33,952 bases of DNA from positions 1-33,952 of the forward strand of contig JAJECN010000008.1 in assembly GCA_022821965.1 (NCBI GenBank). Reading direction: 5' to 3'. This document shows, piece after piece, positions 17,380 to 23,206 of this stretch (position 1 is its first letter; each line of letters opens with the position of its first letter). This DNA is from Candidatus Poribacteria bacterium (GTDB taxonomy: Bacteria > Poribacteria > WGA-4E > WGA-3G). The notes under the pieces are model-generated. The model made no database searches. It was not told where the DNA came from and saw only the letters and a program-made list of their open reading frames with translations. The position numbers and the translations under genes were made by a program.

Positions 17380-18585
17380 TCAATATTGTCCCTTAAGCGT
17401 GAGCGTCGCGATAGTGTGTGTATAGTTGAGAAAGTCAAGCAGCGGGTCTTCTTCGTTGGTGCGGTTTCGGGTCATCTGGTAATCGGCGTTGAGTGTGAAA
17501 TACGGATTAAATTGCCAGTTCACCTGCACATTCGCGCCTATCTGCGTATCCCGACGGTTTAGTGGATTTTCTGGGATATTTCCGGTTTCGTCGAGAATCT
17601 GTCTGCCTTCAAACTGTACCCACAGTCTGGAGAGTCGGAGTCGCAACCAGCGTCCGGTATCAAACCGATAAAAGGAACTCGCTGCGACCTCGGTGCTGAC
17701 GAAGTTGAAGAAATCGACGTTGGAACGATTCAAGAATAGGTTAATCTCTTCTTGAAACATGAGTCCTTCCGTTGCGACTTGTATGAGTTTCGCTGAACCG
17801 ATATGTCGCCAGTCTTTTCGGCGTTCATTGTCGTCCAGTCCTGTCACACCTAAGATGAGGTTGTTCAAATTGGTTTGGTAGCTGCCATGCTCGATCCCAT
17901 ATTCCAGTTTGCCGAGTACCTGTTTGAAAAGCCCAAATTCCACGCGCGATGTCATCTTATGGCTGGTGGAACCGATAAGCAGGAAATCCTCTCTACGCGT
18001 ATTTTCATCGTCAAATCGGTGTAACCGCAGGTTGTATTCTAACACGCGCCCAAAGCGGAGTCCGAGTTGCCGTTCAGTATTGTTATAGATATTCGAGGTT
18101 CGCACGAAACGTTGCAGCCGATGTGAAGCCACAAGTGGCGGTAGACTTGAGACGGGCTGAAAGCTCAGTTCAGTTAAAAATACATCGTTGAATGCGTCGA
18201 ATTCGTTGAGTTTTCCGTCCGCACCGGTATAGTTTTCGACTTGAGGGACGTACTGCAGTTTGAGTCTGAGTTCATCGGTTACTGGTAAATCGCCACTCAG
18301 GTCAACGCCGAAGCGGTTAATCAGACCAGCAAGTTGTGGGTCTTCTTCTCCTGCGAGGCTGCTCGTATATGGATCTACACTCAAACCGAGTTCAATGTGA
18401 TTATTGAATGTATTAGAGAAGTGGGCATTAAGTGCGAGTTCTGCGGATTCTGTTTCAGATGTTTCAGGTTTTCTTTCCAGGAGGTTTTGTCCGAATTCGG
18501 GTTGAAACTGTGCGTACACGCTGCTTACGCCCAGTTGTATACAGATGAAAAGGCATATCACCAAAGAGACGGTTACTCTTCTCAT
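17380..18585 (-). CDS. putative outer-membrane beta-barrel protein
   Basis: 401 residues with a signal peptide ending SVYA before QFQPEFG. The mature protein has alternating strands rich in aromatic and charged residues (LRLKLQYVPQVENY, QLGLRFGRVLEYNLRLHRFD, WLRLRLSRLWVQFEGR, NVQVNWQFNPYFTLNADYQM). It ends in an aromatic residue (LTLKGQY), as outer-membrane barrels do. No named family is recognised. Its ATG overlaps the stop of the upstream gene (ATGA, 4 bases), so it is translationally coupled to the duplicated-module gene at 18582 and thereby to the PIN gene. That pairing is odd for a barrel and may only reflect operon drift. Confidence 0.6.
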   Translation of the reverse strand: MRRVTVSLVICLFICIQLGVSSVYAQFQPEFGQNLLERKPETSETESAELALNAHFSNTFNNHIELGLSVDPYTSSLAGEEDPQLAGLINRFGVDLSGDLPVTDELRLKLQYVPQVENYTGADGKLNEFDAFNDVFLTELSFQPVSSLPPLVASHRLQRFVRTSNIYNNTERQLGLRFGRVLEYNLRLHRFDDENTRREDFLLIGSTSHKMTSRVEFGLFKQVLGKLEYGIEHGSYQTNLNNLILGVTGLDDNERRKDWRHIGSAKLIQVATEGLMFQEEINLFLNRSNVDFFNFVSTEVAASSFYRFDTGRWLRLRLSRLWVQFEGRQILDETGNIPENPLNRRDTQIGANVQVNWQFNPYFTLNADYQMTRNRTNEEDPLLDFLNYTHTIATLTLKGQY

Positions 18586-19076
18586 TTTTCATTTCCCGGG
18601 TGTTCATTTTTGACCTCTTGAACAGTCGGCACTATATTCTGTTCAGTCAGTTTGTGGTTGTCGGCAGCGTAAGAACCTGTCCCTGGTGCACAGAGCCGGA
18701 TGAACCTCGGCATTCCAGCAATACTCAACCTATCTACAAGTGCTTCAAGACCGAGTGTGTAAAGATCCTCATCTGAGATTTCTCGAATACGTGTTGCCAG
18801 TGGTTTCCCATTTTTAGAGATATAAGTTTTCAGCTTGGATATACGGTTCCGTTCCGCTTCTGCTTCTTTGCTTGCTTGGTGAATTTGCTCGACGAGAGTG
18901 TCTATATCTGGCAAATTGTCCTGCCATTCATGCCGTTCAACCGAATAATCGCCAGTGCATGGGGCGTGCATATTAATAATAAGAAAACGGGACGCTCCAG
19001 TTTTACCAAGTTTGTTTGTAAGGGCTTCGACCCCCAGATCATAAAGTTCACTATCGGTTATCTTTAGGATGCTCAC
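18582..19076 (-). CDS. duplicated-module partner of the PIN gene (antitoxin-like)
   Basis: 164 residues from a GTG at 19076 with GGAGGT 8 bases upstream. The protein holds the same ~35-residue module twice. Residues 5-35 are KITDSELYDLGVEALTNKLG... and residues 99-136 are EISDEDLYTLGLEALVDRLS..., both continuing (S/P)RF and T-G-(D/S)-Y. Between them lies a charged helix or coiled coil (residues ~55-92). From memory, single-copy proteins ending in a GDYTKERxxWL-like motif commonly sit next to PIN-domain genes in cyanobacteria and other bacteria. That supports an antitoxin-like or PIN-regulating role, but no DNA-binding domain is evident. It overlaps the PIN gene by 26 bases and the barrel gene by 4. 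Confidence 0.6.
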   Translation of the reverse strand: MSILKITDSELYDLGVEALTNKLGKTGASRFLIINMHAPCTGDYSVERHEWQDNLPDIDTLVEQIHQASKEAEAERNRISKLKTYISKNGKPLATRIREISDEDLYTLGLEALVDRLSIAGMPRFIRLCAPGTGSYAADNHKLTEQNIVPTVQEVKNEHPGNEK

Positions 19077-19539
19077 TGCTATTTACCTCCTGTAACCATG
19101 TATATGGATTTTCGACTCGAACACGCAGATCGGAACTGAACCTTTTGGCTTTCCTAAAGAGCCGGTCATCTGTTGTAAGAAAAATATCTACTTTGCCGCT
19201 CTCGGCGCAAGCCAGATGCAAGGCATCAAACCATTTGAATCCAAGGGTTTCGAGTTGTTTACCTCTTAAATTTTCCGTTGTACCAATCGAAATTTTTTGA
19301 TACGCTGCATTCATCTGAGATTTTATTCGAGAACGTTGAATCCAATTTGGGGTGTTGTTGACTTCGATTGTTAGAACCTCACTGACAACCCAGTGCCAGC
19401 GACTCGCGACGAAAGCTTCAAGGATTTTCTCAATAGCCTCGGTCTCGCGGCGAATCCGATCCTGCGTCTGATCATTAAACGGACGACTTAAACAACACGT
19501 ATCAAGATAAATTTTCCAGTTGTAAAAAGGTGTTTTCAC
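19051..19539 (-). CDS. PIN-domain protein (VapC-like ribonuclease)
   Basis: 162 residues from a GTG at 19539; the ribosome site is weak. The PIN-fold acidic set is present: Asp13 in KIYLDTCCLSRP, Glu54 in VVSEVLTIEV, Asp105 in KWFDALHLACAE and Asp124/125 in FLTTDDRLF. These would bind Mg2+ or Mn2+ for RNA cleavage, as in VapC toxins. It overlaps the downstream duplicated-module gene by 26 bases, a typical toxin-antitoxin arrangement, although here the PIN gene comes first. It starts only 23 bases after thiG, so it may be read with the thiamine genes. Targets are unknown. Confidence 0.85.
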   Translation of the reverse strand: MKTPFYNWKIYLDTCCLSRPFNDQTQDRIRRETEAIEKILEAFVASRWHWVVSEVLTIEVNNTPNWIQRSRIKSQMNAAYQKISIGTTENLRGKQLETLGFKWFDALHLACAESGKVDIFLTTDDRLFRKAKRFSSDLRVRVENPYTWLQEVNSSEHPKDNR

Positions 19540-19562: not shown

Positions 19563-20333
19563 TTATTCTATCATTCCGGTTTGTGGGCTTGAGGCGGTCG
19601 CGTAGAGTTTCCGAGGTATCCGTCCTGCTAAAAACGCGGCTCTCCCTGCTTCGACTGCTTTTTTCATGGCCTCCGCCATCAGAACGGGGCGGTGTGCTTT
19701 CGCGACTGCTGTGTTGAGCAGAACACCATCGCATCCCAACTCCATCGCAATCGCTGCATCTGAGGCAGTGCCGACACCAGCATCCACGATGAGCGGCACC
19801 TGCACGAGGTCCCGAATAATCTGAATATTATACGGATTACGGATTCCCATCCCTGAACCGATCGGCGCACCCAGGGGCATTACGGCAGCGCACCCAATGT
19901 CTTCTAATTTCTTGCATGTAATTGGATCATCGTTACAGTATGGGAGCACCGTGAAGCCGTCTTTCACAAGCGTTTCCGCTGCGCTGAGGAGCTGCTCCAC
20001 ATCTGGAAACAGCGTCTCTTCATCACCGATAACTTCAACTTTGATGAGGGATGTCCCAAGTGCTTCTCGCGCGAGGTTCGCTGTCAGAATTGCGTCCTTT
20101 GCTGTGAAGCAGCCCGCGGTATTTGGGAGGATCGTCATACCGCGTTCACGGAGGAGTGCGAACAGGTTCTCTCCAGATGAATCTGTAAATTTCACGCGGC
20201 GCATCGACACCGTCGCGATTTCTGCACCGCTGGTGGTAATGGCTTCCGTCATTATATGGAAGTTCGGATACCCTGCTGTTCCGATCAGCAGCCGTGATGT
20301 ATATGTTTGGTCTGCGATTTTGAATTCTTGCAT
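19563..20333 (-). CDS. thiG: thiazole synthase
   Basis: 256 residues, normal for ThiG. The enzyme forms the thiazole phosphate ring from deoxyxylulose phosphate, iminoglycine and ThiS-thiocarboxylate. The TIM-barrel blocks are intact: [35 protein letters not shown], the Schiff-base Lys98 in [73 protein letters not shown]. The ATG has no clear ribosome site. It lies 209 bases after thiS, a longer gap than usual for this pair. Confidence 0.95.
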
Positions 20334-20762: not shown

Positions 20763-20832
20763 TTACGGCACACGGCGTGTGCCTACTACTTTAAGTGTGG
20801 TTACGACACACAGCGTGTGCCTATTACTTTAA
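20763..20832. repeat. two direct copies of a palindromic unit at the thiO 3' end
   Basis: A 32-base unit occurs at 20763 and again at 20801 (period 38). Each centres on a palindrome, ggcacacggcgtgtgcc at 20767-20783 and a one-mismatch version at 20805-20821. The second copy contains the stop codon of the thiO gene ending at 20824. It could be a stability hairpin pair between thiO and thiS. Confidence 0.65.
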
Positions 20833-21960
20833 AAATCGGTCTAATTGAAACGGGGCGATTATCTCTGAAGTTTTACCGGTCAGAATCAGTTTGGCTATTT
20901 CGTAAGCCGTAATGGGTGTGAGTAAAATGCCATTGCGATAATGTCCTGTTGCGTATATCAGGTTCTCAACAGGTGTTTCGCCGAGTATAGGAGCATTGTC
21001 TCTACTACCGGGACGTAAACCCGTCCATGTTTCCAGAAGCGGCAGTTCGTAGATACCCGGCACGGCTTCCCACGCCCCACGGAGCAGCTCAAATGTGCCA
21101 CCAGCCGTTAAGCGTGTGTCAAACCCCATCTCCTCGCTTGTTGCACCGACGATAAGTCTGCCGTCGGTTCTCGGTACCAGATATACCGACGTTGGATACC
21201 TTGCCCTGACAGTGCGGATGACATTTTTAACTGTAATACCGGCTTCCATCTGCAATGCCAACATCTGTCCTTTCACAGGACGCACCGGCGGCCGGAGGGT
21301 ATCTGGTAGTCCTTCAATCTGTGCAGACCAGCATCCTGCTGCGAGAATCAGTGTATCTGCTGCCTGAAAACCGTCTTGTGTTTGAACACCAGCTGCGACT
21401 CCGTTTTCTATAACGACGCTCTCAATGGTGCTATTTTCATGCAGCACGCCTCCACAAGCCTGAAAGGAATGCTGGAGTGCCTTTACCATCAGTCGGTTAT
21501 CAACTTGATGATCGGTCGCACAACGGATGGCTGCGGTCACGCGAGGTGAAAGGGCAGGTTCGATTTCACGCGCTGCGCGTCCAGTCAACCACTCGACATC
21601 TAATCCTAAGTCCTGTTGTGAAGTGTGAAGATGCCGAAGTTGATGTGTATCATCAGGTTCTAATCCGACGATGAGTGTGCCTTCTGCTCGATAACCGACG
21701 GTCATCTCTGCATCCGCTTCTAATTCACGAACCCATTGCGGATAGCGTTGTAAGCCTTGGCAACCGAGTTTGAGCAGTTCCGGTTCTTCGTTATGTGCTT
21801 CAGCGAGGGGCGCGAGCATCCCAGCGGCTGCCCAAGAGGCGGCGCGTCCGGCTTCAGCACGGTCGTAAATGGTGACGGGGACTCCCGATTTCGCAAGCTG
21901 CCATCCGATACCGAGTCCGATCACACCGCCACCAATGATGAGAACTGTTTTGTTTATCAT
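20824..21960 (-). CDS. thiO: glycine oxidase ThiO, copy 1
   Basis: 378 residues. FAD-dependent oxidation of glycine to iminoglycine, the substrate of ThiG, in the cytoplasm. The N-terminal dinucleotide loop (VLIIGGGVIGLGIGWQLAKSG), the motif AGRAASWAAAGMLAP, YRAEGTLIVGLEPDD, RPVKGQMLALQM, VYLVPRTDGRLIVGAT and the C-terminal ATGHYRNGILLTPITA are all intact. It is next to thiS and thiG on the same strand. A close paralogue follows upstream (22067-23206), and by eye roughly three quarters of residues agree. Both look functional. Confidence 0.92.
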   Translation of the reverse strand: MINKTVLIIGGGVIGLGIGWQLAKSGVPVTIYDRAEAGRAASWAAAGMLAPLAEAHNEEPELLKLGCQGLQRYPQWVRELEADAEMTVGYRAEGTLIVGLEPDDTHQLRHLHTSQQDLGLDVEWLTGRAAREIEPALSPRVTAAIRCATDHQVDNRLMVKALQHSFQACGGVLHENSTIESVVIENGVAAGVQTQDGFQAADTLILAAGCWSAQIEGLPDTLRPPVRPVKGQMLALQMEAGITVKNVIRTVRARYPTSVYLVPRTDGRLIVGATSEEMGFDTRLTAGGTFELLRGAWEAVPGIYELPLLETWTGLRPGSRDNAPILGETPVENLIYATGHYRNGILLTPITAYEIAKLILTGKTSEIIAPFQLDRFLK

Positions 21961-22066: not shown

Positions 22067-23206
22067 CTACTCCTTTGAAAACCTGTCCAAGTGAAATGGG
22101 GCGATTGTTTCTGATGTCTCACCCGTCAGAATCAGTTTGGCTATCTCGTAAGCTGTGATGGGTGTGAGTAAGATGCCGTTGCGATAGTGCCCTGTTGCAT
22201 ATATTAGATTTTCGACAGGTGTTTTACCGAGTATGGGGGCATTGTCTCTGCTACCGGGACGTAAGCCTGTCCACGTTTCGATAAGTGGCAGTTCGTAGAT
22301 ACCGGGCACAGCTTCACACGCCCCGTGGAGGAGTTCATATACACCCCCAACGGTCAGGTCCGTGTCAAACCCCAGTTCCTCGGTTGTTGCACCGACGACG
22401 AGTCTACCATCGGTTCTTGGCACTAAATATACCGGCATCGGATACCTCGCCTTGACGGTACGGATGACGTTTTTGAGCATGGTGCCTTCCCGCATTTGCA
22501 ACGCTAACATCTGTCCCTTCACGGGACGCACGGGAGGGATAATAGTATCCGGTAACCCGCTGATCTGTCCAGACCAGCATCCTGCGGCGAGAATACACAC
22601 ATCTGCGCCTTGGAAACCGTCTTGTGTTTGAACACCAGTTGCGGTTCCATTTTCTATGACAATTTTTTCAACAGCACTATTTTCATGCAACACGCCGCCG
22701 CGCCCCTGATAGGCACGCTGGAGTGCCTGAGCCATCAGTCGGTTATCGACTTGATGGTCAGTTTCACAACGAATAGCTGCAGTCACGTATGGTGAGAGGG
22801 CTCCTTCAATTTTACGTGCTTCTTCTCCACTCAACCACTCAACATTCAACCCTAAATCTTGTTGTAAGTTATAAGAATGCCGGAGTTGATATGCATCATC
22901 GGGTTCAATTCCTATAATGAGCGTGCCTTCTGCCCGGTAACCGATTGACATCTCGGTTTCTGCCTCTAATTCATCGACCCATTCCGGGTAGCGTGCTAAA
23001 CTCTGGTTGCTGAGTTTGAGGAGGTCGAGTTCGTCAATGTGTGCTTCAGCAATTGGACCGAGCATACCACCGGCTGCCCAAGAGGCACCGCGTCCGGCTT
23101 GTCCGCGCTCATAAATGGTGACAGCGGCACCCGCTTTCGCAAGCTGCCATCCGATACCAAGTCCAATCACACCGCCACCAATGATGAGAATTTTTTTATT
23201 TTTCAT
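22067..23206 (-). CDS. thiO: glycine oxidase ThiO, copy 2 (tandem paralogue)
   Basis: 379 residues, same domain plan as copy 1: ILIIGGGVIGLGIGWQLAKAG, AGRGASWAAGGMLGP, GYRAEGTLIIGIEPDD, RPVKGQMLALQM, YLVPRTDGRLVVGATTEELG, ATGHYRNGILLTPITAYE. No key residue is missing. It lies 106 bases upstream of copy 1. Two adjacent intact copies of a normally single-copy gene suggest a recent duplication kept for dosage, or one copy oxidising another amino acid (for example sarcosine or a D-amino acid). That is inference. No TPP riboswitch is recognisable in the 62 bases before it. Confidence 0.9.
   Translation of the reverse strand: MKNKKILIIGGGVIGLGIGWQLAKAGAAVTIYERGQAGRGASWAAGGMLGPIAEAHIDELDLLKLSNQSLARYPEWVDELEAETEMSIGYRAEGTLIIGIEPDDAYQLRHSYNLQQDLGLNVEWLSGEEARKIEGALSPYVTAAIRCETDHQVDNRLMAQALQRAYQGRGGVLHENSAVEKIVIENGTATGVQTQDGFQGADVCILAAGCWSGQISGLPDTIIPPVRPVKGQMLALQMREGTMLKNVIRTVKARYPMPVYLVPRTDGRLVVGATTEELGFDTDLTVGGVYELLHGACEAVPGIYELPLIETWTGLRPGSRDNAPILGKTPVENLIYATGHYRNGILLTPITAYEIAKLILTGETSETIAPFHLDRFSKE

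What the first reader, a model, noticed from the sequence alone, without database searches (positions are those of the whole stretch)
18582..19539. PIN gene with a duplicated-module partner, coupled to thiG and a barrel gene
The PIN gene keeps all its acidic residues. It overlaps a gene that carries one ~35-residue module twice (residues 5-35 and 99-136). Usual partners of this type have the module once. The second copy has lost the conserved ERHEW-like end (it reads AADNHKL), so the two halves may bind different things. The partner then overlaps a beta-barrel gene by ATGA, giving an odd chain of PIN, partner and barrel downstream of the thiamine genes.
Basis: partly seen in the sequence, partly recalled or inferred. 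Interest (0 to 1): 0.58.

Follow-up and report, generated by a model that had tools for sequence, protein, structure and literature searches.

The report
PIN toxin with two-module antitoxin
The two genes look like a bacterial toxin-antitoxin pair, a PIN-domain RNA-cutting toxin and a helical antitoxin of an unnamed family; related bacteria usually carry the antitoxin module twice but keep only one of its two tails, and natural gene exchange at this site hints at which parts set the pairing.

Summary
The window belongs to a Poribacteria-like genome. A VapC-fold PIN gene (19051-19539, -) overlaps a two-module partner (18582-19076, -), which overlaps a barrel gene by ATGA. The module is about 67 residues, not 35.

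The partner is an antitoxin-like family with no confident Pfam or NCBIfam model. It sits beside PIN genes in many phyla: PIN directly upstream in 70 of 85 loci, mostly single-module. In this phylum two modules are the norm: 127 of 146 ORFs. Exactly one of the two modules keeps the conserved tail in 124 of 127; neither in none. Cyanobacteria duplicated the module independently.

The best evidence for antitoxin function is decay. PIN genes are often broken beside an intact partner (12 cases in 8 genomes, 9 at the thi site, 3 shared), never the reverse. Two natural PIN-partner fusions exist. thiG and barrel are neighbours without the cassette in 16 of 44 genomes, so they flank an insertion site. 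Alleles swap there, including PIN plus the first half of module 1.

Toxicity and neutralisation are untested.

The parts
19051..19539 (-). PIN-domain gene (162 aa, GTG start), VapC-fold RNase, candidate toxin
   Evidence: ORF; PF01850 30.7 bits vs cut-off 23.6; acidic residues in invariant columns of 130 PINs; relative L226 model matches VapC chains
18582..19076 (-). two-module partner gene (164 aa, GTG start), candidate antitoxin
   Evidence: ORF; module repeat; linkage, decay and fusion evidence
18951..19073 (-). module 1, first (helical) half; switches together with PIN between species
   Evidence: 57% DNA identity to G078 while the neighbouring tail is 93%
18870..18950 (-). module 1 tail (GDYSVERHEW...), the conserved end kept in one module per protein
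   Evidence: (124 of 127)
18600..18791 (-). module 2, tail lost (GSYAADNHKL)
17380..18585 (-). beta-barrel-like outer-membrane gene, downstream flank of the insertion site; not part of the system
   Evidence: neighbour of thiG also where the cassette is absent; only weak hits to BBP2_2 and EpsL models
19563..20333 (-). thiG, upstream flank of the insertion site; not part of the system
   Evidence: PF05690 E 7.8e-112

Best explanation
A type II toxin-antitoxin cassette, inserted between thiG and a barrel gene. The PIN protein is the toxin, a VapC-fold RNase. The downstream partner is its antitoxin, from a small helical family without a confident Pfam or NCBIfam model. The ancestral antitoxin is one module of about 67 residues: a helical first half and a tail (G-[DN]-Y-[ST]-x-x-R-H-x-W plus a terminal helix). 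Inferred: the tail docks on the PIN, perhaps placing its conserved arginine at the acidic active site, and the first half adds recognition of the cognate PIN. In this phylum the module was duplicated and one tail was then lost, leaving a protein with two helical halves but a single working tail, perhaps a built-in dimer that binds one toxin per chain. Shown here: linkage, decay asymmetry, two natural fusions, one-tail rule, independent duplication, allele exchange. Inferred: toxicity, neutralisation, docking mode.
For: Linkage: PIN directly upstream in 70 of 85 loci from about a dozen phyla, plasmids included; in the own genome all 8 module loci have a PIN or PIN remnant. Decay asymmetry: in 8 genomes, read by hand, 16 canonical pairs with both genes present and the PIN intact, 12 intact partners with a broken or missing PIN, 0 intact PIN without a partner; at the flank-anchored thi site, 9 against 0; 3 loci are in both sets. 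Fusions: one ORF joins PIN and tail (L333) and one joins a divergent PIN and a module-like helix (L335). PIN and partner distances correlate (Mantel r 0.69, n 82; r 0.80, n 130; 0 of 1000 permutations). AlphaFold2 of a natural PIN-TAG-module reading gives mean pLDDT 90.3 and pTM 0.83, with the terminal module helix at 94. The PIN part matches VapC chains (Foldseek prob 1.00; VapC11 6a7v_A Z 11.3, rmsd 2.4, 127 aligned). The cassette is exchanged as a unit at a fixed site.
Against: No toxicity, RNase or binding data exist. 23 of 127 two-module ORFs and 15 of 85 outside loci have no PIN hit nearby. The fold search found no known relative of the partner, so no DNA-binding or antitoxin fold supports the assignment. 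The docking rests on model confidence alone; no coordinates or error matrix could be read, and the chain was tethered by read-through. Some PIN breaks could be assembly errors, though these should hit the partner equally. Genome-wide, PIN distance tracks module 1 first half, module 1 tail and module 2 first half about equally (partial r 0.28, 0.28, 0.33), so specificity is not cleanly placed in one half.
Confidence: 0.85

Rival explanations
1. The PIN-partner pair is not a toxin-antitoxin system but an RNA-processing nuclease with an accessory subunit that regulates a host process such as thiamine or envelope gene expression.
For: The cassette lies inside a thi-barrel gene string with very short gaps and an ATGA overlap; some partners carry TPR domains.
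Against: Presence is patchy: 16 of 44 genomes have thiG next to the barrel without it. Up to 14 module matches per genome lie at scattered sites. PIN decays while the partner survives, which does not fit an enzyme with a helper subunit.
Confidence: 0.1
2. The second module is a functional second antitoxin domain that binds a different target (another PIN or DNA).
For: Module 2 is still recognised by the module profile in all 127 two-module proteins (which selects for this), and its first half tracks the PIN (partial r 0.33). Tail-less second modules are retained over long divergence.
Against: Its tail region shows no relation to the PIN (partial r -0.05), and no DNA-binding family was matched. 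Proteins with a single module exist in the same genome.
Confidence: 0.3
3. Intact partners without PIN are anti-addiction antitoxins kept by selection rather than relics of toxin decay.
For: 12 such loci in 8 genomes; G051 keeps two partners in tandem and no PIN at the thi site.
Against: Many show PIN fragments alongside (for example G083, G076, G082), as expected of simple decay; no selection test was run.
Confidence: 0.25

Closest known systems
VapBC type II toxin-antitoxin systems (PIN toxin)
   Same: PIN domain of VapC fold with the acidic residues; small partner gene overlapping it; multiple copies per genome; partner outlives the toxin.
   Different: The toxin gene usually comes first; the partner matches none of the RHH, AbrB, Phd, DUF433 or UPF0175 antitoxin families by Pfam; the partner module is duplicated in this phylum with only one tail kept.
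PIN-COG2442 (DUF433) pairs of cyanobacteria and Chloroflexi (Makarova 2009, PMC2701414, passages read)
   Same: Small partner of about 70 residues beside PIN genes, common in cyanobacteria and Chloroflexi.
   Different: No member of 51 single-module partners matched a DUF433 model.
FitAB and VapB tail insertion into the PIN active site (recalled, not tested)
   Same: A conserved arginine in a C-terminal tail that could sit at the acidic site.
   Different: Here the tail follows a helical half of unknown fold; docking is a prediction only.

Membership tests
PIN domain (PF01850) | Score above the family cut-off and conserved acidic residues | tested here: met
   30.7 bits against 23.6; D13, E59, D105, D124 in invariant columns
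VapC fold | Structural match to VapC toxins | tested here: met
   tested on relative L226, not on the window PIN itself: Foldseek prob 1.00 but E only 2.9e-3; 6a7v_A Z 11.3, rmsd 2.4, 127 aligned
Type II toxin-antitoxin system | Adjacent co-directional toxin and antitoxin genes as a conserved pair | tested here: met
   70 of 85 outside loci; 104 of 127 two-module ORFs in the phylum
Type II toxin-antitoxin system | Toxin is harmful alone and the antitoxin neutralises it | not testable with these tools
   indirect only: decay asymmetry
VapB antitoxin families known for PIN toxins (RHH, AbrB, Phd, DUF433, UPF0175) | Match to the corresponding family model | tested here: not met
   no such hit for the window partner or for 51 single-module relatives
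DNA-binding autorepressing antitoxin | Known DNA-binding fold | tested here: inconclusive
   predicted helical; no fold match, which excludes nothing
VapBC | RNase activity of the PIN protein | not testable with these tools
   only conserved acidic residues

The most novel reading that the evidence does not exclude
A widespread, unnamed helical antitoxin family for PIN toxins which, after tandem duplication, keeps exactly one toxin-binding tail. At a fixed site in the thi gene string PIN and the first half of the tail-bearing module are exchanged together, with a breakpoint inside the antitoxin gene, while the tail and module 2 stay. Nature has thereby separated a pairing-specific half from a general inhibitory tail within one antitoxin.
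Probability: 0.4. Interest if true: 0.65.

Novelty: new variant of a known kind. Interest (0 to 1): 0.5.

Why it matters
It points to an antitoxin family missing from the Pfam, NCBIfam, PHROGs and PADLOC libraries searched here, although it accompanies PIN genes in about a dozen phyla. The one-tail rule and the natural mosaics make it possible to test directly which part of an antitoxin blocks the toxin and which part chooses it, a recurring question for the many paralogous VapBC pairs in one genome.

Tried and rejected
Rejected: my first idea that the tail is kept in the PIN-proximal module. It fitted the five two-module loci of the own genome, but of 23 partners that precede the PIN, 12 keep the tail in module 1 and 11 in module 2 (an earlier, narrower pattern gave 11, 9 and 3 unclassified).

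Rejected: a functional link of the cassette to thiG or the barrel; empty sites exist in 16 of 44 genomes. Two further genomes (G052, G069) hold unrelated DNA there, and G050 holds a remnant of the partner's first module.

Weakened: specificity lying only in the first half of module 1. It holds for the mosaics at the thi site and for 13 thi-site loci (regression weights 0.50, 0.08, 0.03), but not over 68 loci.

Led nowhere: viral contigs, no confirmed relative; PHROGs, none; solved-structure sequence searches, nothing convincing for the partner and nothing for the PIN; fold search of the partner model, best Foldseek E 3.4 and best VIA Z 2.1, an absence that excludes nothing; literature searches. 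The first joint alignment (A5) misplaced the PIN rows and was discarded. In A7, 3 of 61 rows still overlapped the wrong part.

Caveats of method: the tail pattern was written after viewing the sequences. The counts for 8 genomes were read by hand. The module tree has 68 columns for 247 rows and used the quick method; two Oscillatoria first modules fell outside the cyanobacterial fork. For the joint fold I chose rows whose alignment had been checked, so that selection favours a clean alignment, not a given docking.

Full report
What is there. On the minus strand the window carries, in order, two thiO-like genes, thiS, thiG, a PIN gene (19051-19539), a partner gene (18582-19076) and a barrel gene (17380-18585) (thiS named by eye). 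thiG and PIN are 23 nt apart; PIN and partner overlap by 26 nt; partner and barrel overlap by ATGA. The window is contig C52 of a 5.7 Mb genome. A relative with the same pair is titled Candidatus Poribacteria (L202), so I treat the phylum as Poribacteria-like; the genome itself is unnamed.

The PIN. It matches PF01850 at 30.7 bits (cut-off 23.6). In 130 intact PINs the columns of D13, E32, E59, D105, D124 and D125 are fully conserved. The PIN part of a modelled relative (L226) matches VapC chains with Foldseek probability 1.00, though with E-values only down to 2.9e-3, and reaches VIA Z 11.3 (6a7v_A, rmsd 2.4, 127 aligned) and 11.4 (1w8i, rmsd 3.0, 145 aligned). The PADLOC model PDC-M11A also matches the window PIN at E 6.4e-5.

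The partner. Its two halves align at 40% identity over 58 columns. The module is about 67 residues: a helical first half with conserved G, L-G and R-F, and a tail G-D-Y-S/T-x-x-R-H-x-W followed by a helix. AlphaFold2 on the window protein gives mean pLDDT 79.6, pTM 0.68, all helical, tail 142-164 disordered. No confident match exists in Pfam, NCBIfam, PHROGs or PADLOC; of 51 single-module relatives, 2 gave single weak Pfam hits (E 0.0048, 0.0079) and none an NCBIfam hit.

Distribution. In the own genome 13 module copies lie at 8 loci, each with a PIN or PIN remnant. In the phylum 61 of 84 genomes have the module. I fetched 122 loci there, from the best-scoring listed matches, which favours intact copies; they hold 146 module ORFs, 127 with two modules and 19 with one. 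Of the 127, 104 have a PIN hit within 300 nt on the same strand: 77 before, 23 after, 4 both; 23 have none. Outside, a scan of named genomes confirmed 139 relatives and kept the best 80; with 5 plasmid loci (one record, Smac51, counted twice) this makes 85 loci. PIN lies directly upstream in 70 of 85, downstream in none; of 87 module ORFs 73 have one module and 14 have two, all 14 in cyanobacteria. Titles span Cyanobacteria, Nitrospirae, Chloroflexi, Deltaproteobacteria and Thermodesulfobacteria, Acidobacteria, Planctomycetes, Atribacteria, Armatimonadetes, Bacillota, Gemmatimonadetes and others. Viral contigs gave none. So the single module is the usual form outside this phylum, and the double module is the usual form inside it.

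Independent duplication. In a tree of 247 modules from 68 columns, 20 cyanobacterial rows (7 first, 9 second, 4 single modules) form one starred fork apart from the modules of this phylum. Cyanobacteria therefore duplicated the module on their own. Nine of their 14 double proteins still keep both tails by eye, as expected of a younger duplication.

One tail per protein. With the pattern [DN][YFW][STA]xxR, written after viewing the sequences, 111 of 127 double partners keep the tail in module 1 only, 13 in module 2 only, 3 in both and 0 in neither. The rows are related, so this is not 127 independent events, but the tail is kept at opposite ends in different clades and is never absent.

Why an antitoxin. 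First, decay is one-sided. In 8 whole genomes, read by hand, there are 16 canonical loci with an intact PIN, all with a partner (one of them, G080 near 503k, split by a stop after module 1; one fused to its PIN), plus one divergent pair. In 12 loci the partner is intact and the PIN is broken or absent; in none is a canonical PIN intact without a partner. The one divergent PIN without a profile hit (G081, L334) is followed by a module-like helix that runs on into an unrelated protein. At the thi site, found through its flanking genes and so without regard to either gene, 25 of 44 genomes hold the cassette: in 14 both genes are intact; in G075 the PIN is intact and the partner is split after module 1; in 9 the PIN is broken or absent beside an intact partner (G047, G051, G057, G059, G068, G076, G079, G082, G083); in G072 both are broken. 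Three loci are shared by the two sets, so 18 against 0 in all. If either gene were equally free to decay first, 18 to 0 would be very unlikely; losing the antitoxin first should be lethal, losing the toxin first is harmless. Second, there are two natural fusions in one ORF: PIN plus the tail of a module (L333), and a divergent PIN plus a module-like helix (L335). Third, PIN and partner distances correlate. Fourth, in L226 the PIN stop codon TAG is directly followed by the partner's ATG in the same frame; read through as one chain, it gives mean pLDDT 90.3 and pTM 0.83, the module's terminal helix at 94 and its first half at 71-79. A high pTM with the tail confident suggests, but does not show, that the tail docks on the PIN.

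The site. thiG and the barrel are neighbours without a cassette in 16 of 44 genomes, sometimes overlapping directly (G064), hold a partner remnant in G050 and unrelated DNA in G052 and G069. The barrel has a match in 74 of 84 genomes of the phylum. The thiG-barrel junction thus also exists without the cassette, in other genera of the family too. It has been filled by at least two classes of cassette: between the window and G074 thiG is 92% and the barrel 93% identical in DNA, but PIN is 72%, the linker 39% and module 2 48%.

A natural dissection. Between the window and G078 the DNA identities run thiG 92, PIN 74, module 1 first half 57, module 1 tail 93, linker 84, module 2 90, barrel 85. Between G054 and G047 they run 88, 70, 65, 91, 93, 94, 90. 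In both pairs the break lies near window position 18950, between the first half and the tail. PIN and the first half of module 1 thus moved together while the tail and module 2 stayed with the flanks. This points to the first half as the part that must match the PIN. Against a strict form of this, over 68 loci the partial correlation with PIN distance is 0.28 for module 1 first half, 0.28 for its tail, 0.33 for module 2 first half and -0.05 for the decayed module 2 tail. Only the decayed tail is clearly free of the PIN.

Relation to what is known. It works like VapBC. Passages of Makarova 2009 (PMC2701414; 12 of 38 places shown) list RHH, AbrB, Phd, COG2442, COG2886, COG2880, COG1753 and MerR partners of PIN; this family is not recognisable among them, but COG membership was not tested and the supplements were not read. 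Papers found were seen as listings with abstract starts only; none names this family there, and the library lacks most subscription journals.

Verdict. An ordinary kind of system (a PIN toxin-antitoxin pair) with an apparently unnamed antitoxin family, an unusual and lineage-wide duplicated form, and natural recombinants that make antitoxin specificity testable. Toxicity and neutralisation remain to be shown.

Noticed in passing
L002:1108-1938 (own genome C19) and longer relatives such as L070:2423-3508: Some double-module partners continue after module 2 into TPR repeats (PF00515 E 9.1e-20 for L002), in place of the lost tail; several module ORFs are 270-430 aa.
   Followed up: partly
window 20824-21960 and 22067-23206 (-): Two closely similar thiO-like FAD oxidoreductase genes in tandem upstream of thiS and thiG (PF01266).
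   Followed up: no
L175:2913-4035 (own genome C9): A PIN gene flanked by two partners: a two-module gene upstream and a one-module gene downstream that overlaps it.
   Followed up: partly
L116:3136-4207 (G051): Two partners of different classes in tandem at the thi site, with no PIN gene left.
   Followed up: partly
L334:1755-3200 (G081) and L335:1920-2621 (G079): A divergent PIN type (YLDLNLYCR) whose module-like helix is fused to the PIN in one genome and, in the other, runs on into what looks by eye like a GmrSD-type protein.
   Followed up: no
L343:1783-2118 and L345:1461-1730 (G028): Small proteins that keep the conserved tail but have a different first half, like the tail in the fusion L333.
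   Followed up: no
L217:1985-2707 (Leptolyngbya): A module gene directly after a different PIN-like ORF (by eye) that the PIN profile did not match, a possible change of toxin partner.
   Followed up: no
window 19051-19539: The PIN matches the PADLOC candidate defence model PDC-M11A at E 6.4e-5.
   Followed up: no
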